Part shown: positions 6,244 to 61,361 of the stretch, piece after piece
Position numbering within the stretch: position 1 is the first letter of the stretch
How the letters are laid out: each line of letters starts with the position of its first letter
IMG/VR virus record: IMGVR_UViG_3300032323_003201
Span: 1-64,000 of that record
Reading direction: 5' to 3' (one strand)
Length of the DNA: 64,000 nucleotides
Source of the DNA: a virus
The notes under the pieces: model-generated
Databases searched by the model: none
The model's input: the letters and a program-made list of their open reading frames with translations, nothing else
Told to the model about the DNA's origin: nothing
Program-made: the position numbers and the translations under genes

Positions 6244-6846
6244 ATGGGTAGGAAAAAAAATTACGATATTAGCACGCTAGAGAGACAACTCAATGGCCAA
6301 GTAGATATCACACAAATAGAAGAGCCTATTGCTCAAGAAGTACACCCCTACTTAATAGGTCAAGATGTACCACCTCTTCCTTATGATGATATCTATAGGG
6401 AACGATGGCTAACAGTTGTTGAATATTTGGTGGGTGTAAGAAGAATATTTGGTGCATCTGTGATTGCAGAGATTTGTGGTATAGCAAATAACACAGCTAG
6501 CAACCTACTTGATGAGCTTAAAATTAGGTGGGGGAAAACACTGACACCAGCACAAGCAAATTCACGAAGAGAAGCTCTCTACCAAGAGTGTGAAAGGGTC
6601 AAGGCACTTGCTTGGGAAGAGGTGATGATCAACCCCAAAGAAAAGGTAGCATATCTAAGGCTTGTGCTAGAAGCTCAAAAGAGACAAGCTACCTTGTGTG
6701 GATTAGACAAGCTCGAAATATCTGTTGAGCAAATCACCACAGAGAAAAAAGAAATAGCGATTGATGCATCACCAGAAACCTTGTCTCAAATAGGTCACAT
6801 ACTTGCACAATCGATTTCATCGCAGAAAAGGCTAAATGATGGATAA
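6244..6846 (+). CDS. terS: Terminase small subunit (putative)
   Basis: 200 residues placed directly before and overlapping the large terminase gene by 11 bases, the usual position of the DNA-recognition subunit. A helical segment around residues 70-95 (FGASVIAEICGIANNTASNL) reads as a helix-turn-helix, followed by long charged helices that could form the oligomer. Start chosen at ATG 6244 after GGAG. Identification rests mostly on position plus HTH. Confidence 0.7.
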   Translation: MGRKKNYDISTLERQLNGQVDITQIEEPIAQEVHPYLIGQDVPPLPYDDIYRERWLTVVEYLVGVRRIFGASVIAEICGIANNTASNLLDELKIRWGKTLTPAQANSRREALYQECERVKALAWEEVMINPKEKVAYLRLVLEAQKRQATLCGLDKLEISVEQITTEKKEIAIDASPETLSQIGHILAQSISSQKRLNDG

Positions 6847-8524
6847 TAATGAGAAAAAATTAAATGACCTTATGCAAACCAAAGAGGGAAGAAAGCTTTT
6901 ATCCAAGCACTCACCATCCTTCTTTGCATCCTACTATCTTGGGTACTCTTACACAAATCACCAAGACAGGTGGCTCAAGCTGATTGATGGTATGGTAAGT
7001 GAGGGTAAGAAAACCAATGAAAAGAAAAAGCTCCTTTTACTCGCACCTCGTGACCATGGTAAGAGCATGCTCTGTATTGCAGTCACTCTTAGAGCTTTAT
7101 GCCTTGATCGTAATACAAGAATTTTATGGCTCTCTAAATCCATTGGCCAAGCAGAAAAGCGTGTGCGTGTGTGTAAGAACCATTTCCAAGATCAGAGATT
7201 AATAGACGATTGGGGAAGTGATGAGCCTTTTGCTCGCAAGGATATTGATAAATGGACAAGCACACAAATCTATCTTAATCGTACACTTAATTCTATTGAC
7301 CCAAGCATTGAAGCTGTGGGAGCTGGTGGCTCTATTACAGGTGGACACTTTGACATGATTATCATAGACGACTTGGAGGATGAGAAGACAGTCTTTAGTG
7401 CATCCCAAAGACAAAAGACAAGGGATTGGTTGAAAGGCACTTGTATGCCTATGCTCACAAAGGGTGGCACAATGGTTGTTGTAGGCACAAGAAAGCACTA
7501 TGATGATTGCTACAACATGATGATCAAAGATCCAACCTTTCAAGTGGTTTGTACACCTGCTATTATCAAGTGGCCTAAATCCTACAGACATGTTCTAAAG
7601 GAGGTTGATGGTAGAGCCATGTGGCAAGATGTTGTGATAGAGGGTGATTATGAAGTGCTTTGGCCAGAAGAAAGAAACATTAAATTACTACTCAAAGAAT
7701 TATATTCAGCTGGGTCATTGTCCTTTACTCGTGAATTTCAAAACCAAGTGCAATCTGACAACGATGCTATCTTTAAGCTCTCATGGCTAGACGCAGCTAA
7801 GGACAGAGGTTTCTTTTATTCATATGGTGAAGTGCCACCAGTAGAAAGAATGGTAGTAGTGCAAGCTTGGGATTTAGCTTTAAAAACTGATAAGAAATCA
7901 GCTGAAGAACAAGATAGCGATTACACTGTAGGCATTACACTTGGCAAGGATGAGAAGGGAAATCACTACCTACTTTCTATGTTTAGAGATAGAGGTTTAA
8001 CACCTTCCCAAATCTACCAAGCGATTATTGATGAATTTAACAAGTTTAAAAAATTATGTCATGTCATCTCTATTGAAAAGAACAACTTTGGTCAGCTACA
8101 TACCTTCACACTACAAAAAAACACTGACCTACCTATTAAGGAACATGTCACAACAGCAGGCAATAAGAATAGTGCATGGATAGGTGTGCCAAGCCTTACC
8201 ACCCTCTTTGAGAATGGGAAAATGATCCTACCAACAAAGACACCAGAGGATGTAGATAAGTCAGATTTATTATGTAGTGAGCTGTATGGTCTTGGGAAGG
8301 AAAAGCATGATGATACAGTCATGAGCCTTTGGATTGCAGTATCTGCCATGAGAGATAGTGATTTTCAATATTCTATTGCTGTGGGTGATACCATGCTTGA
8401 TGCACATGGTGAAAAAATGACACAAGCGAATTTTTCTTCCTATAGTAAGATAGCTCAAAGCGAAGCTGTCCAGTCTATTTGGGATAGCTTTCAAATAGAC
8501 TATGATGTTGATGATGAAGGATAA
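6836..8524 (+). CDS. terL: Terminase large subunit (packaging ATPase/nuclease)
   Basis: Motor that cuts and packages genomic DNA into the prohead. Walker A is APRDHGKS (70-77) and Walker B MIIIDDLED (174-182), with a coupling-type GTRKHYDD near 217. The RNase H-like nuclease has Asp346 (VQAWDLALK), Glu414 (ISIEKNN) and Asp492/493 (KHDDTVMS). 562 residues is normal for the family. Both domains appear intact. Confidence 0.95.
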   Translation: MMDNNEKKLNDLMQTKEGRKLLSKHSPSFFASYYLGYSYTNHQDRWLKLIDGMVSEGKKTNEKKKLLLLAPRDHGKSMLCIAVTLRALCLDRNTRILWLSKSIGQAEKRVRVCKNHFQDQRLIDDWGSDEPFARKDIDKWTSTQIYLNRTLNSIDPSIEAVGAGGSITGGHFDMIIIDDLEDEKTVFSASQRQKTRDWLKGTCMPMLTKGGTMVVVGTRKHYDDCYNMMIKDPTFQVVCTPAIIKWPKSYRHVLKEVDGRAMWQDVVIEGDYEVLWPEERNIKLLLKELYSAGSLSFTREFQNQVQSDNDAIFKLSWLDAAKDRGFFYSYGEVPPVERMVVVQAWDLALKTDKKSAEEQDSDYTVGITLGKDEKGNHYLLSMFRDRGLTPSQIYQAIIDEFNKFKKLCHVISIEKNNFGQLHTFTLQKNTDLPIKEHVTTAGNKNSAWIGVPSLTTLFENGKMILPTKTPEDVDKSDLLCSELYGLGKEKHDDTVMSLWIAVSAMRDSDFQYSIAVGDTMLDAHGEKMTQANFSSYSKIAQSEAVQSIWDSFQIDYDVDDEG

Positions 8525-27485: not shown

Positions 27486-29417
27486 ATGCCTTCATCAGTG
27501 ATTTTTCAAGGTGGCAGAAAATATAGACCAGGTGTCTATGGTGAAATCAAGACAGCTCCCACAGCCAACCCTAGCATTGCAAGTGGTGCTGTGGCTCTCG
27601 TTGGTGATTTCCCTCTCTTCCAAAAAGATAGTGTCCACACCTTTGACAACCTAGAAGCCTTTTTAGAAGCAACTGGGGGGGAATATGGCCTTGATATACT
27701 TGGACAGATTGGTTTCTCACCTAGAGCAGATTTAGGTGGCAATCCCACAAGTATTACAATCGTAAATGCTCGCAATACAACCCAAGCAAGCCACACAGTG
27801 GGTGGGTTAAAGGTAAAGGCAAGACACTATGGCACTTGTGGCAATCGTGTTTTTGTGTCCTTGGTTGCGAATGTAGATAATGCAGATCTTTATGATTTAT
27901 ATATCTCTGAGGGTGGCTCTATTGTAGAGAAGAACAAGGGGATTGGTAAGGGGAAGATTGCAAGCCTACAATACACAGGCTCTTTACTCACAGATGTTAA
28001 GCTTGTATCAAATCAAGGCTTAGATAAGTTTGCTCTCACCTTTGTGAAAAGCATTAGCTCATCAATCATCATACCAGGTACTGCAATTGCTTTGAATGAC
28101 CTTGGTGTTGTGGGTGCACTTACCTTTACACAAAGACTACTTGCCACCCCATCCCCTGTATCAATTACAATTCATGGTTTATCAGAGACAGGCTCATCAA
28201 TCACTACCACAACCACCTTGCCTGCTGGTGCAGTGGGGACAAGTGTTACTACAAGTCAAGAGTATTCTCAAATCACAAGTATTGTGCTAGATGGTGCAAG
28301 TGATTATGCAGGGTCTATTGAAATCAGTGGCTCTTTATACTCTGTCAAGCTCTCAGAGATTTCAAGCCTTAGCTCAACTCTAGTCAGTATCAACCAAGTG
28401 CATGATGACATTGTTGTGGTTTTGCCTGAGTCTATTGTCAGTGGTGTACAGCTCGATGATGTTGCAAGTGTCAGCATTTTAGGCAGTGCCTTATCTCTTA
28501 CATGTGATTGTGCCTTCCTCAAGGATTTCCTAGATGGTAGCCTTGTTTGTGAGGGTGAAATTGTCAGTGGTGCAAGACCAACAGCACAAGATTTTAGATT
28601 AGTAGGTGGGTCTTTAGGCTCACTCACAGCAAGTGATTGGCAATCTGCTCTTGATGCACTTGTGTATAAGCAAGTCAATATCGTTGTTGCATACTCAGAG
28701 GATATTGCTATCCACCAGCTTGTAAAGGCACATTGTGAAAAGGCATCTATTGAAGCTGGCCTTGAGAGAAATGCTTGGTGTGGCACAAGTGCAGGCTTAA
28801 CACTCAATCAAATCTATGCTCAATATGTGAAAGTTTTGAATGATAGAAATTGTGCAGTAGTGGGTCAATCCCCAATCGTGCTAATCAATGGGGAGAAAAA
28901 GACACTTGCACCCAAAGCACTTGCATTCTTCATGGCATGCTTTCAAGCCTCTCTTGGTGTTGCAACACCTCTTACAAGAAAGCAACCCAAGATATTTGCA
29001 ACAACTCAAGTATTTAACCCTGAAGCAGATGCAAGCCTTGCAATTCAAAAAGGCATTGTAATTCTCAATGGCCAAGATCGTGGGTTAAAAGTTGAACGAT
29101 CTATCACTACTTGGCTCAAGGATTTAAACCCCTTCTATACTGAAGTATCTGCGAATGAGAGCATCAATCTTTCTATTAGAGATTTAAGATTATTCCTTGA
29201 TACAGAGATTGGGAGCAAGTCAACAGTAGCTCAAAAGGATAATGTTCAAAGGCTTACAATCAATCGCTTGAGCTTTCAAAGAGACAGTGGCTTAATCCTA
29301 GATTTCAAGGATGTGTCAGTGCGTCAATCTGGGGATGTCATTAGCATTGTCTATGCAATGGCAGGAATTGAGCCACTCAATTTCATCACTATCACAGCTA
29401 ATGTAGGGAGAATTTAG
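27486..29417 (+). CDS. Tail sheath protein
   Basis: 643 residues; makes the contractile outer cylinder. The N-terminal RPGVYGEIKTAPT and a C-terminal domain ending in DNVQRLTINRLSFQRDSGL and GIEPLNFITITANVGRI are typical sheath features. Ribosome site GGAG 8 bases before the ATG. Tail tube follows after two bases, as in other contractile tails. The presence of a sheath defines this as a myovirus. Confidence 0.92.
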   Translation: MPSSVIFQGGRKYRPGVYGEIKTAPTANPSIASGAVALVGDFPLFQKDSVHTFDNLEAFLEATGGEYGLDILGQIGFSPRADLGGNPTSITIVNARNTTQASHTVGGLKVKARHYGTCGNRVFVSLVANVDNADLYDLYISEGGSIVEKNKGIGKGKIASLQYTGSLLTDVKLVSNQGLDKFALTFVKSISSSIIIPGTAIALNDLGVVGALTFTQRLLATPSPVSITIHGLSETGSSITTTTTLPAGAVGTSVTTSQEYSQITSIVLDGASDYAGSIEISGSLYSVKLSEISSLSSTLVSINQVHDDIVVVLPESIVSGVQLDDVASVSILGSALSLTCDCAFLKDFLDGSLVCEGEIVSGARPTAQDFRLVGGSLGSLTASDWQSALDALVYKQVNIVVAYSEDIAIHQLVKAHCEKASIEAGLERNAWCGTSAGLTLNQIYAQYVKVLNDRNCAVVGQSPIVLINGEKKTLAPKALAFFMACFQASLGVATPLTRKQPKIFATTQVFNPEADASLAIQKGIVILNGQDRGLKVERSITTWLKDLNPFYTEVSANESINLSIRDLRLFLDTEIGSKSTVAQKDNVQRLTINRLSFQRDSGLILDFKDVSVRQSGDVISIVYAMAGIEPLNFITITANVGRI

Positions 29418-29419
29418 TC

Positions 29420-29902
29420 ATGGTACAACCAAGAGTAATCAGTGGTGCATCTGCTATCGTCAAGCAAAATGGCAAAGCGATTGGATACTGCACCAATATC
29501 ACAGTAACAGAGAATTACACCCTTCAAAGAGTGGATGTTTTAGGCTCTATTGATAGCTATGACATTGAGCCTGTAGGTAGAACAGTGAGCTGTCAAGTGG
29601 GTTTCATGAGAGTAGTGCCAAATGGTGGGTCTGCTGCACAAGGTCTTGTTCCTAGCCACCTTGCCACAGCTACCAATCAACAAAGAACAGTCGATGTGGT
29701 TAATTTCTTTTCTCAAGGTGTGGATTTAGAATTAGCTGACTCTGCTGATTTTGGTGCAGGTCAAAAGACACGATATTTAATTAAGGGTTGCAAGCCAGAG
29801 AGCCAAAGCTTTACTGTAAATCGTCAAACTTTGATGGCAACAAATGTAAATTTCCAAGCCTTAAAGCTCATTGAAATCAAGGATGAAGAGCAATTAGGCT
29901 AA
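29420..29902 (+). CDS. Tail tube protein
   Basis: 160 residues directly after the sheath. The segment GYCTNITVTENYTLQRVDVLGS and the later TVNRQTLMATNVNFQALK fit the gp19-like tube fold. The last 32 bases (29871-29902) recur at 30352-30383 beyond the next gene. Its stop codon overlaps the stop of the leftward gene at 29899. Confidence 0.85.
   Translation: MVQPRVISGASAIVKQNGKAIGYCTNITVTENYTLQRVDVLGSIDSYDIEPVGRTVSCQVGFMRVVPNGGSAAQGLVPSHLATATNQQRTVDVVNFFSQGVDLELADSADFGAGQKTRYLIKGCKPESQSFTVNRQTLMATNVNFQALKLIEIKDEEQLG
29871..29902 (+). repeat. Tube-gene 3' end, copy 1 of a 32-bp direct repeat
   Basis: TTGAAATC-A-AGGATGAAGA-G-CAATTAGGCTAA; matches 30352-30383 at 30 of 32 positions. Contains the tube stop TAA and, on the other strand, the stop TAG of the leftward gene. 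Confidence 0.95.
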
Positions 29903-30339
29903 TTTCTTCGTGAGATATCAACCTCAAAATACTCATGTAACTCTTTAATGTATTCATCAAATGGTAAAAAATCAAAATCACAGAAAATCTCTTCTATCAA
30001 ATCCTCACGACTGAAACAAGGCTCATGCTTGTAGGTTGTGATTTTTTCAGCAAGCTCATATTGTCGATCATCATTGATTGTGCCAATGACATATGGGATG
30101 GGGTAGAAGTATTTGGTGAGTGTGTAAAACTCTAGCTTGGTACTCTTATCCTTATCACCAGAGATGAAGATATCAAGCTTTTGGTAACCAATAAGAATAT
30201 GAAGCACAATCAAATCTTTCTCATACTCAATCAAAGAGTGACAAATAGATTTTGGATACCCCAATTCTTTCACCTTATCGCCTAATGTAGTGGATAGTGT
30301 TTGCAATTCTTCTTCAGAGAAAGAGAAAGTTAGGCTCAT
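29899..30339 (-). CDS. Island protein A, hypothetical
   Basis: 146 residues from the ATG at 30339 (GGAG seven bases upstream), although the frame is open further. Acidic, with no recognised domain. It shares a pattern with the product at 31155: YPKSICHSLIEYEKDLIVLHILI against HPKSICPTIEYKHNHLAL. It is the last gene of a four-gene leftward island that interrupts the rightward tail operon. The stop overlaps the tube stop by four bases (tail-to-tail). Function unknown; accessory (morphogenesis-independent) cargo is likely. Confidence 0.7.
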   Translation of the reverse strand: MSLTFSFSEEELQTLSTTLGDKVKELGYPKSICHSLIEYEKDLIVLHILIGYQKLDIFISGDKDKSTKLEFYTLTKYFYPIPYVIGTINDDRQYELAEKITTYKHEPCFSREDLIEEIFCDFDFLPFDEYIKELHEYFEVDISRRN

Positions 30340-30351
30340 GGATAGACTCCT

Positions 30352-30383
30352 TTGAAATCTAGGATGAAGAACAATTAGGCTAA
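30352..30383 (+). repeat. Tube-gene 3' end, copy 2 (fossil fragment)
   Basis: Repeats the end of the tube gene, but has an in-frame TAG replacing AAG in the tube reading frame, so it is non-coding debris. The leftward ORF B also ends here, with its TAG at the same position as ORF A's. Confidence 0.95.
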
Positions 30384-30727
30384 ATGAGTTTCTTATCACC
30401 AACAGGACAAGTATCAGTAAATAAAGCAAGGATTTGATCTAGTTTTAAACGATTGCTTACTTCGTTAGTGTAGTAATCATTATCAATCCATCCAGATGGT
30501 AAATACAACAGAGAGATGGAGTATGTGCCATCATTGTAATCAAACAAATACATGATCATCATGCCTTTGCTTTCACATTTGTAGCTAATCATAGCAACCT
30601 GTTCTTCTTCAACAAGCATGCTATCAAATTTTATACAGGTCTCATCAAGATCATATTTCTTTTTTGATGCATATAAGAAGAAATTGGATTTGATCGTTTC
30701 TTTTTGTTTTTGTGTGAGTTTTAGCAT
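30380..30727 (-). CDS. Island protein B, hypothetical
   Basis: 115 residues. N-terminus LTQKQKETIKSNFFLYASKKKYD resembles that of island protein D (LNASQKEQLKQNLISFLKRLKFD), suggesting common ancestry. Mixed alpha/beta, no known family. It overlaps ORF C start by 7 bases. Its stop lies within the second copy of the duplicated tube terminus. Confidence 0.65.
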   Translation of the reverse strand: MLKLTQKQKETIKSNFFLYASKKKYDLDETCIKFDSMLVEEEQVAMISYKCESKGMMIMYLFDYNDGTYSISLLYLPSGWIDNDYYTNEVSNRLKLDQILALFTDTCPVGDKKLI

Positions 30728-31122
30728 TTGTTTTTAAGGTATTCCTTCAAGCGTGTTGTTCGGTCAGTCAACCATTCATCTTGTAGACGCTGAGACTCTT
30801 TTGGATCAGGCCAAAAAGAATAAGCACATGTAATCAATCTCTCAACTAAAGCAGATCTAGTATCATTTGGGTATACAAGAGTTTCTTGAAAGCCAGAGTC
30901 TCCTATCTTAAATAGAATATCCTCTGTTGTTGATCCATCATCATTGAAGTGGTACATACAGCTATATGTACAAAAATCATAGAAAATGCTAATAGCATAC
31001 ATGGGATTACCCTCGATATCTATAGTATGCCTAAGTGGTTTTGTGTGTCCCATAGCTTGTAACTGCATGCACATATTACCAAGTATGAGAGCATGCTCTG
31101 CGTCTGTAAGTGTGATATCCAT
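30721..31122 (-). CDS. Island protein C, hypothetical
   Basis: 133 residues. HTKPLRHTIDIEGNPMYAIS aligns loosely with the HPKSICPTIEYK segment of protein D and YPKSICHSLIEYE of protein A. C-terminus is charged and helical. The ATG at 31122 is preceded by GGAGCTTCCTTT, the same leader as ORF D. No known family. Confidence 0.65.
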   Translation of the reverse strand: MDITLTDAEHALILGNMCMQLQAMGHTKPLRHTIDIEGNPMYAISIFYDFCTYSCMYHFNDDGSTTEDILFKIGDSGFQETLVYPNDTRSALVERLITCAYSFWPDPKESQRLQDEWLTDRTTRLKEYLKNKC

Positions 31123-31154
31123 AAAGGAAGCTCCAGTGGTTTGCTTGTGTATTG

Positions 31155-31640
31155 TTAAGATTTTGATGGTGAATTAAAAGAGCCAATATATTGGTCCCCC
31201 AAAGAACGAATAGCATTTTTGAGTGCACCATTCATATGGTCAGCATATAAAAGATTACCAAACAAGATACCAATATCAAGAACATGGTCATTTAGAATAC
31301 TATTACTGCCAAAAAGAGTAAGAGCATCCTTGATATCCACAGATTTGTCTTGGTAGTCATGGGGGATAAGTAGAGACCCAGAGTCAAAACCCATTGGATA
31401 GAAAAAGACATGTATCTTGCATTTTTGTTCTTCGTTAACCATCTTTTCTTCTAAAACTACTCTCAAAGCAAGATGATTGTGCTTGTATTCAATCGTGGGA
31501 CAAATTGATTTTGGGTGATTGACTTCTTGAAATTCACAAGTTGCAATAGCATATTGTGTGTTGTCGAATTTCAGTCTTTTAAGAAAAGAAATTAGGTTTT
31601 GTTTGAGTTGCTCTTTTTGAGAAGCATTTAGTGTAAGCAT
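31155..31640 (-). CDS. Island protein D, hypothetical
   Basis: 161 residues, first gene of the leftward island. Helical N-terminus followed by a beta-rich region containing VNHPKSICPTIEYKHNHLAL. The leader GGAGCTTCCTTTATG is identical to that of ORF C, so gene plus leader were probably duplicated together. A promoter lies at 31686-31714. Nothing in the sequence suggests a virion role. Confidence 0.68.
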   Translation of the reverse strand: MLTLNASQKEQLKQNLISFLKRLKFDNTQYAIATCEFQEVNHPKSICPTIEYKHNHLALRVVLEEKMVNEEQKCKIHVFFYPMGFDSGSLLIPHDYQDKSVDIKDALTLFGSNSILNDHVLDIGILFGNLLYADHMNGALKNAIRSLGDQYIGSFNSPSKS

Positions 31641-31831: not shown

Positions 31832-32299
31832 ATGAGTAAGAAAGAAACAATTGATTTGAGAAAGATCAAGGCAGATGCTGAGTCTTTAGTAGAGAAAAAA
31901 GAAGATGATTTAGTCAGTAGGGAAGAGAGCTTTTCTATTGAATATGTTGCACCAACAGGCAAACAATTCAGAGCTGATCTTCTCTCTTGTGTCATGGATA
32001 CAGAGAGTAGGCTAGCAATGAATAGGGTTTTACAAAGTCTGTGCATGGGGGTTGTTTTTGATAACCTACCAACAGAAGAAAAATACAGATTACAAGGTCT
32101 TGCTCGTTGTCTAGTACAGCTCAAAGACCCACCAGAGTGGTTAACAGAATGGATTGGTCAAGACAATCAACTGCTTATACAAATTTTGAATACCTTGATT
32201 GAGCATGAAGCTCTTTTTTTTGGAGCAAGCTCCAAAGAGGGTGAAGAGGCTAAGGGACAAAAGCGAATTTCAATTACTGCAAAGTTTACTACCAGATAG
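31832..32299 (+). CDS. Tail assembly chaperone, upstream frame (gpG-like)
   Basis: 155 residues immediately before the tape measure. Acidic helical protein, as expected for the shorter form of a phage tail chaperone. A run of eight T (32214-32221) followed by a perfect hairpin lies near its 3' end and leads to the overlapping ORF in a different frame. Ribosomes that do not shift make this form. Family call is by gene order and the frameshift architecture. Confidence 0.72.
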   Translation: MSKKETIDLRKIKADAESLVEKKEDDLVSREESFSIEYVAPTGKQFRADLLSCVMDTESRLAMNRVLQSLCMGVVFDNLPTEEKYRLQGLARCLVQLKDPPEWLTEWIGQDNQLLIQILNTLIEHEALFFGASSKEGEEAKGQKRISITAKFTTR

Positions 32300-32525
32300 A
32301 ATTAAATACCACCTCTCAATTGAAAATTATTATTCGTGGGAAAATCTTGAGCTTGCCATGCTCCACTGCACACAAGAAACATTTGAGCAAGCCTTCCCCC
32401 ATCTTTATGCTAAAATCGAATTTACAGATGGGATTGCTCTCACAGGTATAGGTGAGATAGACAAGATGGAACAGGCTCTAGCAAGAGGAGAAGATCTAAA
32501 TGAGTACCTCGCAACCTACAAATAA
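32205..32525 (+). CDS. Tail assembly chaperone, frameshifted extension (gpGT-like)
   Basis: Open frame offset +1 from the chaperone ORF. It has an internal ATG (32205) but no ribosome site, so it is probably made only as the C-terminal part of a fusion: residues up to FF of the first ORF, then EQAPKRVKRLRDKSEF onward. The portion after the shift is about 100 residues and precedes the tape measure with a 26-base overlap. This layout matches G/GT proteins of many phages. Confidence 0.68.
   Translation: MKLFFLEQAPKRVKRLRDKSEFQLLQSLLPDRIKYHLSIENYYSWENLELAMLHCTQETFEQAFPHLYAKIEFTDGIALTGIGEIDKMEQALARGEDLNEYLATYK
32213..32236 (+). promoter_or_regulatory. Probable programmed frameshift site
   Basis: In-frame CTT TTT TTT followed by GGA (T run 32214-32221). 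The stretch TTTGGAGCAAGCTCCAAA (32219-32236) folds into a perfect stem-loop directly beyond it. The downstream frame requires a -2 or +1 shift. Confidence 0.7.
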
Positions 32526-34050
32526 CCAAATACCACCACCTATGGGAGTAGCTCAACCACAAATCACAGAGCCACCCCAAGCACAGCCTACAATTGCACC
32601 ACCCACAAGCACACCACAAGCAACAGGCTCAGGTGGTATCATCACTGCGATGAATGGGTTGTCAGCAGTACTCAAGCAACTCATTGAGATTAATCAAAAG
32701 CTGATTGCAAGCAATAACCTAACTGCACAAGCAACACAGCAAGCAACACAGCAAGCAACAGCACAAGCTAAGGCAGAAAAGGCAGAGAAAGAGAAAGAGG
32801 TAACCTTTCAACAGCTTGAACAAAAGATAGCTCAAATTGTTGGCAAGGTGGGTCAAGTGGGTGGTGCAACCAATGGGTTTGCAGGCCAACTCTCTGCTAT
32901 CCCTTTTGGTCTTGGTGGCTTGCTTGCATCTCAATTCTCTACCTTGATGGGTGCAGCAGACCAAGCCTCTAGCTATGGGTCAAGCCTTGCAGATTTAAAG
33001 GGTCTTGGTGGTAGTGGGATAGGTGGATTTGCTGGCAAGGGATATAAATCAGGTGAAGCCTTCTCTATTCAAAAAGCGATTGCCATGAGTGGTGGGTCTC
33101 TAAGTGTTGATCAAGCGATTGCAAGTGAGCAAAGAGGCTTGGGAGCTGGTCTAGTCGCTAGTGTGCAAAAGCTTGGTGATGTAGTAGGCAAGCAAGCAAA
33201 TTTAGGTGTATCACTCGCAAGCTCACTAATGGGACAAGATTTATCACCTGAGCAAAGACGATCAGGTCTGTCATCCATTCAAGGCATGCTCTCTCAAAGA
33301 ATGGGGGGTGATTTATCTCTTGCAAGCACCAATAGCACTGAGCTACTTCGTAAAATCAGTGATTCAAGTAGTAAAGGCACAAGTTTTCTCCAAACAATAA
33401 GCGATATTCAAAAAGAGGATGCATTAAAGAAAGGTATCATTGCATCTGATCCAATAGAAACTTTTAATCGTAAGCTATCCACACAGCAAGCAGGTCTATT
33501 ACTCGCACAACAACAGGCTGATGTAATCAAAGCAAGACCTGATCTTAGCTTGTCCCAACAATTACAGCTCTCAAGATACAATTTCATGGGTCAATCCTTG
33601 CCACCAGAGATAGCAGATGCATTCAAGGAATTGCCTCTCATACTTGGTAAAGGGAAGGGTGATTTTAGTGCGATTGGTAGGGGTGGGATTGCCTCTGCTC
33701 AAGCAAGTGCAGAGATGCAAATTATCAATTCAGCTTTAGGCAATTCAAGCTCAATTATTTCAGCAATCCAAGCAGACACAAGAGTGAGAAGAACGAATAT
33801 TTCCACCCAACAAGATTATGAAGAGCTAGGTAAGACAGGGGAAACTGCTGCACAAGCTTTAAGTGTTGGTCTCACAGTGCTTTCTAAGGGTGTAAATACG
33901 CTTGCTGGTGCTATGAATAAGACGATTGAAGCAGTGGAAAAACTCACTGAGAAATTTAGTTTTAGTGGTTTTGGTAATCCATTTAAGAGCGAACCACCAA
34001 AAGTAAAGCAAGAAAATCGTAAGGCAGGGGAGGCTAGCAAGCTACCATGA
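32500..34050 (+). CDS. Tape measure protein (putative)
   Basis: 516 residues, starting in overlap with the chaperone extension and just before the baseplate hub genes. Gln/Pro/Ala-rich N-terminus, a helical segment rich in Gln/Ala/Lys (about 75-115), glycine-rich hydrophobic stretches (LSAIPFGLGGLLASQFSTLMG) and long helical regions, as in tape measure proteins. It is short for the family, implying either a short tail or a divergent protein. Confidence 0.68.
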   Translation: MSTSQPTNNQIPPPMGVAQPQITEPPQAQPTIAPPTSTPQATGSGGIITAMNGLSAVLKQLIEINQKLIASNNLTAQATQQATQQATAQAKAEKAEKEKEVTFQQLEQKIAQIVGKVGQVGGATNGFAGQLSAIPFGLGGLLASQFSTLMGAADQASSYGSSLADLKGLGGSGIGGFAGKGYKSGEAFSIQKAIAMSGGSLSVDQAIASEQRGLGAGLVASVQKLGDVVGKQANLGVSLASSLMGQDLSPEQRRSGLSSIQGMLSQRMGGDLSLASTNSTELLRKISDSSSKGTSFLQTISDIQKEDALKKGIIASDPIETFNRKLSTQQAGLLLAQQQADVIKARPDLSLSQQLQLSRYNFMGQSLPPEIADAFKELPLILGKGKGDFSAIGRGGIASAQASAEMQIINSALGNSSSIISAIQADTRVRRTNISTQQDYEELGKTGETAAQALSVGLTVLSKGVNTLAGAMNKTIEAVEKLTEKFSFSGFGNPFKSEPPKVKQENRKAGEASKLP

Positions 34051-54633: not shown

Positions 54634-55482
54634 TCATTTATGACAAGCTAGACACACCTTAACAGATCCATAAACATCATCTGTATCAAGGGAGCATGAT
54701 CCACCCTGTAGTAAATTTGTGCGTCTTTTCTTTGCTTGCTTGTCTTGATATTGTTGCTTTCTCTTCTCATAGTCAGCTTTGATTTGAGCTACCCTCTCTG
54801 GTTGTGCTAGTTGCTCAAGGCTTTCATTCTCTGACCAAGTGAAAAAATAGCCATCCTTGATACTACTCTTTTCATAATCGATAGCCTCTTGAAAGGCTTG
54901 GGGGTGTCTCTCAAGTAACCCAACCCATTCAATCTTTCTTTGGAAAAAGCAAAAGGTGCATCCACTTCTACTTCTCCATTCATAGTATTGTGGTAAACCA
55001 AGACCAGCATCACTAAGTAGGCTCATGACTCTTGGCTTATCAATGCCATTTTCCCTAAGAGGGAGCTTAATGATTAGGTTTGAGTCTTTTGATTGGTATC
55101 CCTCTCTAAACTCTTCATCTGCACGAATAGCCACATAAGAATAAACTGTATAGCCTTCTTCTAAGAATGCCTGCACCCAATCTTCAAAGGGTTTCAATTT
55201 CATCTTTATGGTGCACCATCGATCAGTGGCACTTGGTAAATAATTACCATGTTGTCTAAGCCAAAAGTCAAAATCTCTCTTAGAGTCAAGTCTATTGATC
55301 TTCTTTCTAAGATAACCCTCTAGCCTATTTAGAAAATCATAGGTTTCAGGCAATTCTTTACCTGTATCTGTGAAGAAATACTCAATATCAATATCAGGGT
55401 GATATGTTCTCATGTAGACTGCAAGGCCTGCACTATCCTTACCACCAGATATACCAAGCACATGTTTTTCTTTTTTAAGCAT
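54634..55482 (-). CDS. PAPS reductase/DndC-like PP-loop protein
   Basis: 282 residues. N-terminal SGGKDSAG is the PP-loop. FTDTGKELPETYDFL, WCTIKMKLKPF and GCTFCFFQRK follow the PAPS-reductase/DndC-type order. Additional cysteines near the end (SVKVCLACHK) could bind Fe-S. In DndC/SspC-type systems such proteins help put sulfur into DNA backbone; in other cases the activity is on sulfate or tRNA. No other dnd/ssp gene is recognisable here, so the target is open. Placed between RNR and clamp genes. Confidence 0.75.
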   Translation of the reverse strand: MLKKEKHVLGISGGKDSAGLAVYMRTYHPDIDIEYFFTDTGKELPETYDFLNRLEGYLRKKINRLDSKRDFDFWLRQHGNYLPSATDRWCTIKMKLKPFEDWVQAFLEEGYTVYSYVAIRADEEFREGYQSKDSNLIIKLPLRENGIDKPRVMSLLSDAGLGLPQYYEWRSRSGCTFCFFQRKIEWVGLLERHPQAFQEAIDYEKSSIKDGYFFTWSENESLEQLAQPERVAQIKADYEKRKQQYQDKQAKKRRTNLLQGGSCSLDTDDVYGSVKVCLACHK

Positions 55483-60764: not shown

Positions 60765-61361
60765 ATGCCTATTCAAATTATTAAGCCAGATAGCGAAGAC
60801 CAAAAGGCTATCTATGATAAGAAGATTTTCCTAGCAGGTAGTATTGAAATGGGTGCTGCTGTTGATTGGCAAAAGGAAGTAGAAGCTGTTTTTGCAAATC
60901 ACTTTTACAAAGAAAGAAATAATAGTGCCACAGTCTACAACCCAAGACGAATTAATTGGGACAGCTCATGGAAGCAATCTATTGACAATGAACAATTTAG
61001 AAATCAAGTTGAGTGGGAACTAAACAGGCTGTTCCAAAGCAATCTCATTTTCATGTACTTGGATGAAAACACTAAATCACCAATCAGCTTACTTGAATTA
61101 GGCTTGTATGCTCAAGATACCAAGCTGGTTGTTGTTTGTGGTGAGAATTTTTGGAGAAGAGGCAATGTAGAGGTAACTTGCAATTATTTTGATGTGCCTC
61201 TGATTATCCACAACCCAAGAGAAGAGAGCCTTACAGATCTTCTGATTGCGAATGAAATGACCTTTTTGAAGATCTTGTACAAGCTTAACCAAACCCTTGA
61301 ATACTTTAGCACAGTAGACCCAAACTTTTCTCTTCAAGCTTTGAAAAAAAAGATGCAATGA
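60765..61361 (+). CDS. Nucleoside 2-deoxyribosyltransferase-like protein
   Basis: 198 residues. KKIFLAGSIEMG (about 20-30), YNPRRINWDSSWKQS (about 58-72) and SPISLLELGLYAQ (about 107-119) match the nucleoside 2-deoxyribosyltransferase-like domain, whose members act on deoxynucleosides or nucleotides; the Glu of LLELG would be the catalytic nucleophile. The context of methylases suggests salvage or modified-nucleotide metabolism, or a toxin-like host-NAD/nucleotide attack. Substrate cannot be told. Confidence 0.78.
   Translation: MPIQIIKPDSEDQKAIYDKKIFLAGSIEMGAAVDWQKEVEAVFANHFYKERNNSATVYNPRRINWDSSWKQSIDNEQFRNQVEWELNRLFQSNLIFMYLDENTKSPISLLELGLYAQDTKLVVVCGENFWRRGNVEVTCNYFDVPLIIHNPREESLTDLLIANEMTFLKILYKLNQTLEYFSTVDPNFSLQALKKKMQ

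What the first reader, a model, noticed from the sequence alone, without database searches (positions are those of the whole stretch)
31832..32525. Programmed -2 or +1 frameshift in the tail chaperone
The two overlapping ORFs just before the tape measure are offset by +1. The junction has CTT TTT TTT GG, followed directly by an 18-base perfect hairpin, and the second ORF lacks a ribosome site. Most phages use -1; a -2 shift is rarer (phage Mu is a known case), and transcriptional slippage on eight T is another option.
Basis: partly seen in the sequence, partly recalled or inferred. Interest (0 to 1): 0.62.

Follow-up and report, generated by a model that had tools for sequence, protein, structure and literature searches.

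The report
Phage tail-chaperone +1 frameshift site
Two overlapping genes of a phage are most likely fused by a programmed ribosomal slip into the +1 frame to make a tail-building helper protein; relatives nearly all slip at one conserved motif (TTT_CGN), and this phage's small clade has swapped that motif for a run of eight T.

Summary
ORF1 (31832-32299) and the ORF2 frame (32199-32525) overlap with a +1 offset at CTT_TTT_TTT_GGA. Eight close relatives that span the junction keep the offset and all eight T. Silent variation collapses in the overlap (3/26 third positions variable, against 74/127 upstream; Fisher P = 9e-6), so both frames are translated there. ORF2 has no ribosome site.

The interpretation needs changing. 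Homologs of both halves of the protein, about 40 distinct contigs outside the clade, place the junction at the same codon with no indel. All but two have TTT_CGN (one TTT_CTC, one TAC_AAA), and all are +1. TTT_CGN cannot re-pair at -2. It is the +1 signal of influenza PA-X and has been proposed for HF1-group haloviruses. The sheath tree nests the window clade inside TTT_CGN users. So a +1 ribosomal shift is inherited and -2 is not needed, although the derived U8_GGA site also permits -2 or RNA-polymerase slippage. The hairpin is broken in every relative and overlaps the slip site, so it is probably irrelevant.

Verdict: a real tail-chaperone frameshift, of known kind, with a derived slippery site. 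The near-invariant TTT_CGN +1 site across bacterial myophages is more notable than the window itself.

The parts
31832..32299 (+). ORF1, tail assembly chaperone short form (155 aa; lambda gpG-like role)
   Evidence: Lies after the sheath and tube genes and before the tape measure; good SD (GGAG); conserved in 9 close relatives and homologous to TAC1 in about 40 further contigs
32214..32221 (+). U8 slippery run, read CUU_UUU_UUU_GGA in the ORF1 frame; the shift site
   Evidence: Invariant in all eight relatives that span it. 32219-32221 is exactly the codon that is TTT in nearly all homologs
32222..32224 (+). GGA codon at the position where homologs have CGN; rarest Gly codon of the phage (6.7 per 1000, GGT 35.9)
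32223..32525 (+). ORF2 part translated after the shift (C-terminal half of the fusion, gpT-like), about 100 aa
   Evidence: Third-position variability pattern shows coding; homologous to the +1-frame extension in related phages
32219..32236 (+). 18-nt palindrome (hairpin) overlapping the T run; judged non-functional
   Evidence: Broken by T32231A in all eight relatives that span it
32242..32244 (+). TGA that closes the -1 frame 7 codons after the slip
   Evidence: -1 frame closes within 7-10 codons in all relatives
29420..29902 (+). putative tail tube protein
   Evidence: phrog_3776, phrog_365; directly follows the sheath
27486..29417 (+). tail sheath
   Evidence: phrog_279 E=1e-39, PF04984
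32500..34050 (+). putative tape measure protein, 516 aa, strong SD
   Evidence: assigned by position only; no significant family hit

Best explanation
The locus encodes a tail assembly chaperone made in two forms from one start at 31832. Most ribosomes end at 32299 and make the short form. A minority slip forward by one nucleotide in the U run (P-site tRNA on CUU or UUU re-pairing on UUU) and continue to 32525, giving a fusion (...EALF-LEQAPKRV...). The site descends from the TTT_CGN +1 site found in nearly all relatives. In this clade CGN became GGA and the two upstream codons became CTT and TTT, so the cognate slip probably moved one or two codons upstream, to UUU_U or CUU_U. Shown: both frames coding, frame conservation, homology of both halves, colinearity without indel, and TTT_CGN ancestry. 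Inferred: that the event is ribosomal, that it is +1, the exact codon, and the chaperone function.
For: Offset, T8 and dual coding are conserved. Direct TAC1 homologs outside the clade (26 loci, E 1e-34 to 4e-10) and a second, partly overlapping set of 27 loci have TTT at the aligned column and CGN next, with two exceptions (TTT_CTC, TAC_AAA); all have a long +1 extension, while the -1 frame is mostly short. The T2 halves align. In the sheath tree the sister of the window clade is TAC_TTT_CGC/CGA (L182, L184, L176; support 0.994) and deeper branches are TTT_CGN. L226 reads CGA_TTT_TTT_CGT, an intermediate toward a T run. More distant myophages: 69/69 distinct sites TTT, 65/69 CGN, all +1, with TTT only 23% of Phe codons there; HF2 TTT_CGC and Thermus phiMa TTT_CGA, also +1. 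There is no ORF2 ribosome site. CUU_U is the most efficient +1 shift site in the RF2 context (PMC5009743).
Against: The defining CGN codon is missing in the window clade, and UUU_G cannot re-pair fully at +1 at the ancestral codon. U8 in exactly this register (C UUU UUU UU) is the minimum for tandem -2 re-pairing of two Phe tRNAs and is close to the length that makes RNA polymerase slip, so the mechanism may have switched. No experiment. No stimulatory element for +1 was found.
Confidence: 0.65

Rival explanations
1. Transcriptional slippage: RNA polymerase omits one U (or adds two) in the T8 run and ribosomes read the altered mRNA without shifting.
For: U8 is invariant in the clade and is the only sense T8 inside a gene of the window. 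Slippage on 9 A or T is efficient in bacteria (PMC5009743). The clade has lost the ancestral ribosomal motif.
Against: 8 is below the documented 9. Documented slippage adds bases, and one added base leads to the -1 frame, which stops after 7-10 codons. Sense A8 runs are tolerated in four other genes. Relatives use a non-homopolymer site at the same codon.
Confidence: 0.2
2. Mu-like -2 ribosomal frameshift: P- and A-site Phe tRNAs on UUU_UUU slip back two bases onto UUU_UUU.
For: The register C UUU UUU UU is exactly sufficient for both tRNAs to re-pair at -2. Mu is a known -2 case (PMC5009743, PMC3498833).
Against: The homologous junction in relatives is TTT_CGN, where -2 re-pairing is impossible, so the frame relation arose as +1. 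A -1 slip on U_UUU_UUU should compete and gives a dead-end product. The downstream hairpin is not conserved.
Confidence: 0.11
3. No fusion: ORF2 is expressed from its own internal start (ATG 32205 or TTG 32199) or by reinitiation.
For: The ATG at 32205 is present in all relatives.
Against: No Shine-Dalgarno; TTG 32199 is lost in some relatives; the ATG follows from the conserved His-Glu codons of ORF1. The same two-ORF geometry recurs with a conserved shift codon in relatives.
Confidence: 0.03
4. Broken gene: an indel or sequencing error in the T run split an ancestral single ORF.
For: Homopolymers are error-prone.
Against: T8 and the offset are identical in eight further contigs; relatives at 32-42% identity have the same offset with no indel and no single-ORF version was seen.
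Confidence: 0.01

Closest known systems
Lambda gpG/gpGT and other recoded tail assembly chaperones (reviewed in PMC5009743)
   Same: Two overlapping ORFs between tail tube and tape measure; the second lacks a ribosome site; slippery site near the end of ORF1
   Different: Lambda and most others use -1; here the frame is +1 and the proteins show no detectable similarity to PHROG or Pfam families
HF1/HF2-group haloviruses, tail chaperone with TTT_CGC (PMC7230728)
   Same: +1 offset at a TTT codon in the tail chaperone; I confirmed GAG AAG TTT CGC AGA TAG in HF2
   Different: Archaeal viruses; the CGN codon is kept there and lost in the window clade
Influenza A PA-X and plant amalgavirus UUU_CGN +1 sites (PMC3498833, PMC5052127)
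   Same: P-site UUU followed by CGN, +1; amalgaviruses also show rare replacement of UUU_CGN by a variant site in two members
   Different: Eukaryotic ribosomes; unrelated genes; the window site is U8_GGA
Phage Mu -2 tail chaperone frameshift
   Same: Access to the same relative frame in the same gene role
   Different: Here relatives establish +1 as the ancestral direction
Thermus thermophilus dnaX transcriptional slippage (PMC5009743)
   Same: Homopolymer run giving access to another frame
   Different: 9-nt run there, 8 here; relatives of this gene do not use a homopolymer

Membership tests
Recoded tail assembly chaperone (gpG/gpGT-type) | Lies between tail tube and tape measure genes | tested here: met
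   Sheath (phrog_279) and a putative tube upstream, long ORF downstream; the tape measure itself is assigned by position only; four minus-strand genes intervene in the window alone
Recoded tail assembly chaperone (gpG/gpGT-type) | Second ORF overlaps the first, in another frame, without its own ribosome site | tested here: met
Recoded tail assembly chaperone (gpG/gpGT-type) | Sequence similarity to a named chaperone family (supportive, not required: these proteins diverge strongly) | tested here: inconclusive
   No PHROG or Pfam hit for either ORF; distant syntenic relatives hit phrog_25000 tail assembly chaperone weakly, but the window family does not match their profile
Recoded tail assembly chaperone (gpG/gpGT-type) | Fusion and short form both needed for tail assembly | not testable with these tools
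   needs genetics
UUU_CGN +1 frameshift sites | +1 relation of the frames at a UUU codon | tested here: met
UUU_CGN +1 frameshift sites | CGN in the A site | tested here: not met
   GGA in the window and all relatives of its clade; CGN in nearly all outside relatives
Mu-type -2 frameshift | Both tRNAs can re-pair two bases back | tested here: met
   U8 in register
Mu-type -2 frameshift | Trans-frame protein carries the extra residue | not testable with these tools
   mass spectrometry needed
Transcriptional slippage site | Homopolymer of 9 or more A/T | tested here: not met
   8 T; threshold from PMC5009743
Transcriptional slippage site | mRNA length heterogeneity at the run | not testable with these tools
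   cDNA sequencing needed

The most novel reading that the evidence does not exclude
The clade has switched recoding mechanism while keeping gene, frame and junction codon: an ancestral PA-X-like ribosomal +1 site (UUU_CGN) was replaced by a U8 run that works by another route (RNA-polymerase slippage or -2), a within-gene change of mechanism comparable to dnaX in Thermus versus E. coli.
Probability: 0.31. Interest if true: 0.62.

Novelty: new variant of a known kind. Interest (0 to 1): 0.47.

Why it matters
Tail-chaperone frameshifts are well known, but +1 shifts in bacteria are poorly understood outside RF2. The comparison shows a +1 site, TTT_CGN, kept almost without exception across about 100 distinct phage contigs, including GC-rich phages where TTC would be expected. 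Bacterial ribosomes therefore probably use the same signal as influenza PA-X. The window clade is a natural mutant of that signal that kept both frames, so it offers a test of what the site needs: the UUU codon, the CGN codon, or only a run that lets the P-site tRNA re-pair.

Tried and rejected
Hairpin as stimulator: rejected. The stem is broken by T32231A in all eight relatives that span it, and it overlaps the slip site so it would be melted by the decoding ribosome; the stretch downstream is not unusually stable (z positive in all). Independent ORF2 start: rejected on SD energy and relatives. Indel or assembly error: rejected. -1 frame: closed within 7-10 codons in all relatives. Profile comparison of window TAC1 with PHB04-like TAC1 found no significant similarity, so for ancestry I rely on the direct homologs found through the capsid profile and treat the PHB04-like set as syntenic support only. 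AlphaFold of ORF1 was too poor to use (mean pLDDT 46). Sheath-based scans for intermediates gave only L050, whose contig ends before the chaperone. No tRNA genes in the window. My first automatic pairing of overlapping ORFs mis-picked several loci, with apparent offsets of 2; it was replaced by the profile-anchored analysis.

Full report
What is there. The window is most of a 72,061-bp IMG/VR virus record, a contractile-tailed phage with SU10-type capsid (phrog_752), sheath (phrog_279) and baseplate proteins. Between the putative tube gene (29420-29902) and the putative tape measure (32500-34050) lie ORF1 (31832-32299) and the open frame of ORF2 (32199-32525), offset by +1. The ORF1 frame reads GAA GCT CTT TTT TTT GGA GCA; the T run is 32214-32221. 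The finding is correct in coordinates, offset, T run, palindrome and lack of a ribosome site for ORF2.

Is it more than chance. Nine IMG/VR contigs carry ORF1 at 92-95% identity and eight of them span the junction. All eight keep T8 and both frames. In ORF1-only sequence 58% of third positions vary, in the overlap 12%, and in ORF2-only sequence 54% of ORF2 third positions (Fisher P = 9e-6 and 2e-4). Variation in the 64 nt just before the T run still has the normal ORF1 pattern (13/21 third positions). So double coding starts near the T run. The T run itself is not rare (5 runs of at least 8 T, 3 expected), but it is the only sense T8 in a gene.

What does not hold. The hairpin TTTGGAGCAAGCTCCAAA overlaps the T run (32219-32236). 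All eight spanning relatives have A at 32231, which replaces the middle A-T pair by A.A and weakens the local fold from -10.2 to -5.8 kcal/mol; the sequence after the junction shows no unusual stability. A ribosome on the slip site would cover the stem anyway (inference).

Ancestry of the site. A profile of the capsid protein found phages at 40-48% capsid identity. Of these, 26 loci outside the window clade carry direct ORF1 homologs, and a scan with the ORF1 family alignment found 27 loci outside the clade, partly the same contigs. Together these are about 40 distinct sequences. Aligned on ORF1, the window TTT at 32219 falls on a codon that is TTT in all but one of them (TAC_AAA in L211), and the next codon is CGN in all but two (TTT_CTC in L154; L211). 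The preceding codon is free: TAC, TGG, TTT or TTC. In the second set the preceding Phe is written TTT 12 times and TTC 3 times, while the shift-site Phe is TTT in 24 of 24 distinct sequences. Every locus has a long +1 extension (150-325 nt); the -1 frame is mostly short. The C-terminal halves are homologous too (RV..xR...EF.LL, ENLE..LL, EQAL..GED) and align without a gap near the junction, so the window needs the same +1 relation with no indel. In a sheath tree rooted on more distant myophages the sister of the window clade is TAC_TTT_CGC/CGA, and every deeper branch in this family except L211 is TTT_C. L226 (CGA TTT TTT CGT GGA) shows a T6 with CGT retained.

Wider context. Seven isolated myophages (Bordetella PHB04, Pseudomonas Dolphis and Touem01, Aeromonas ST4, Morganella Mecenats66, Enterobacter phiT5282EW, Yersinia fHe-Yen8-01) and many metagenomic relatives have two overlapping ORFs at the same place, usually annotated as separate hypothetical proteins. 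In 69 distinct sequences the site is TTT in 69, CGN in 65, TCC or TCT before it in 51; TTT makes up 23% of Phe codons in these loci (log10 P about -48 if independent, which related phages are not). Their profiles do not match the window proteins significantly, so this group supports by synteny only. Halorubrum HF2 (AAG TTT CGC) and Thermus phiMa (GCG TTT CGA) are also +1; Lactobacillus LP65 has a +1 overlap containing TTT CTC, while Mycobacterium Phrappuccino is -1. The TTT-CGC motif was already proposed for HF1-group haloviruses (PMC7230728) and UUU_CGN is established for influenza PA-X and proposed for amalgaviruses (PMC3498833, PMC5052127). My literature searches found no report of it in bacterial phage tail chaperones, but most subscription papers are not held.

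Mechanism. At TTT_CGN the Phe tRNA moves from UUU to UUC (PMC3498833); a -2 move would not pair. The frame relation therefore began as +1. In the window clade UUU is followed by G, so re-pairing at the old codon would put G against G in the third position. The T run instead offers UUU_U and CUU_U, both able to re-pair at +1, one and two codons upstream; CUU_U is the strongest +1 site in the RF2 context (PMC5009743). GGA is the rarest Gly codon of the phage (6.7 per 1000). This is my preferred reading (0.65). Loss of one U by RNA polymerase (within the 0.20 given to transcriptional slippage) gives the same protein, ALFLEQAPK; -2 (0.11) gives ALFFLEQAPK. Both are allowed by the sequence; neither is required by the ancestry. 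The exception L211, where the aligned codons are TAC_AAA_AGA, offers AAA_A and suggests that UUU_CGN, when lost, is replaced by another run that permits +1 re-pairing (inference from two cases).

Limits. The chaperone function rests on position and recoding geometry; no family hit supports it. No protein or RNA data exist. Host unknown.

Noticed in passing
L036-L042 and about 60 further loci: PHB04-like myophages have a near-invariant TTT_CGN +1 site (usually TCC/TCT_TTT_CGN) at the junction of two overlapping ORFs before the tape measure, mostly annotated as two separate hypothetical proteins.
   Followed up: yes
window 29899-31640, minus strand: Four short minus-strand genes, some weakly similar to each other, sit between tube and chaperone only in the window; the sheath-to-chaperone gap is 2415 nt against 625-763 nt in close relatives. 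No convincing family hits. Looks like an inserted cassette.
   Followed up: partly
L211 (TAC1 ORF from about 17078): Shift site TTT_CGN replaced by TGG_TAC_AAA_AGA while the +1 offset is kept: a second loss of the motif, perhaps shifting on AAA_A.
   Followed up: partly
L101, L116, L118, L123: PHB04-like loci with TTT followed by AAA, AGA, CAA or CAG instead of CGN.
   Followed up: no
L134 (Thermus phage phiMa) 2293-2977 and L135 (LP65) 6839-7982: +1-offset overlapping ORFs before the tape measure with TTT_CGA and TTT_CTC inside the overlap, not annotated as frameshifted.
   Followed up: partly
window 54634-55482 and 60765-61361: PAPS-reductase-domain protein and a nucleoside 2-deoxyribosyltransferase-like protein carried by the phage.
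   Followed up: no
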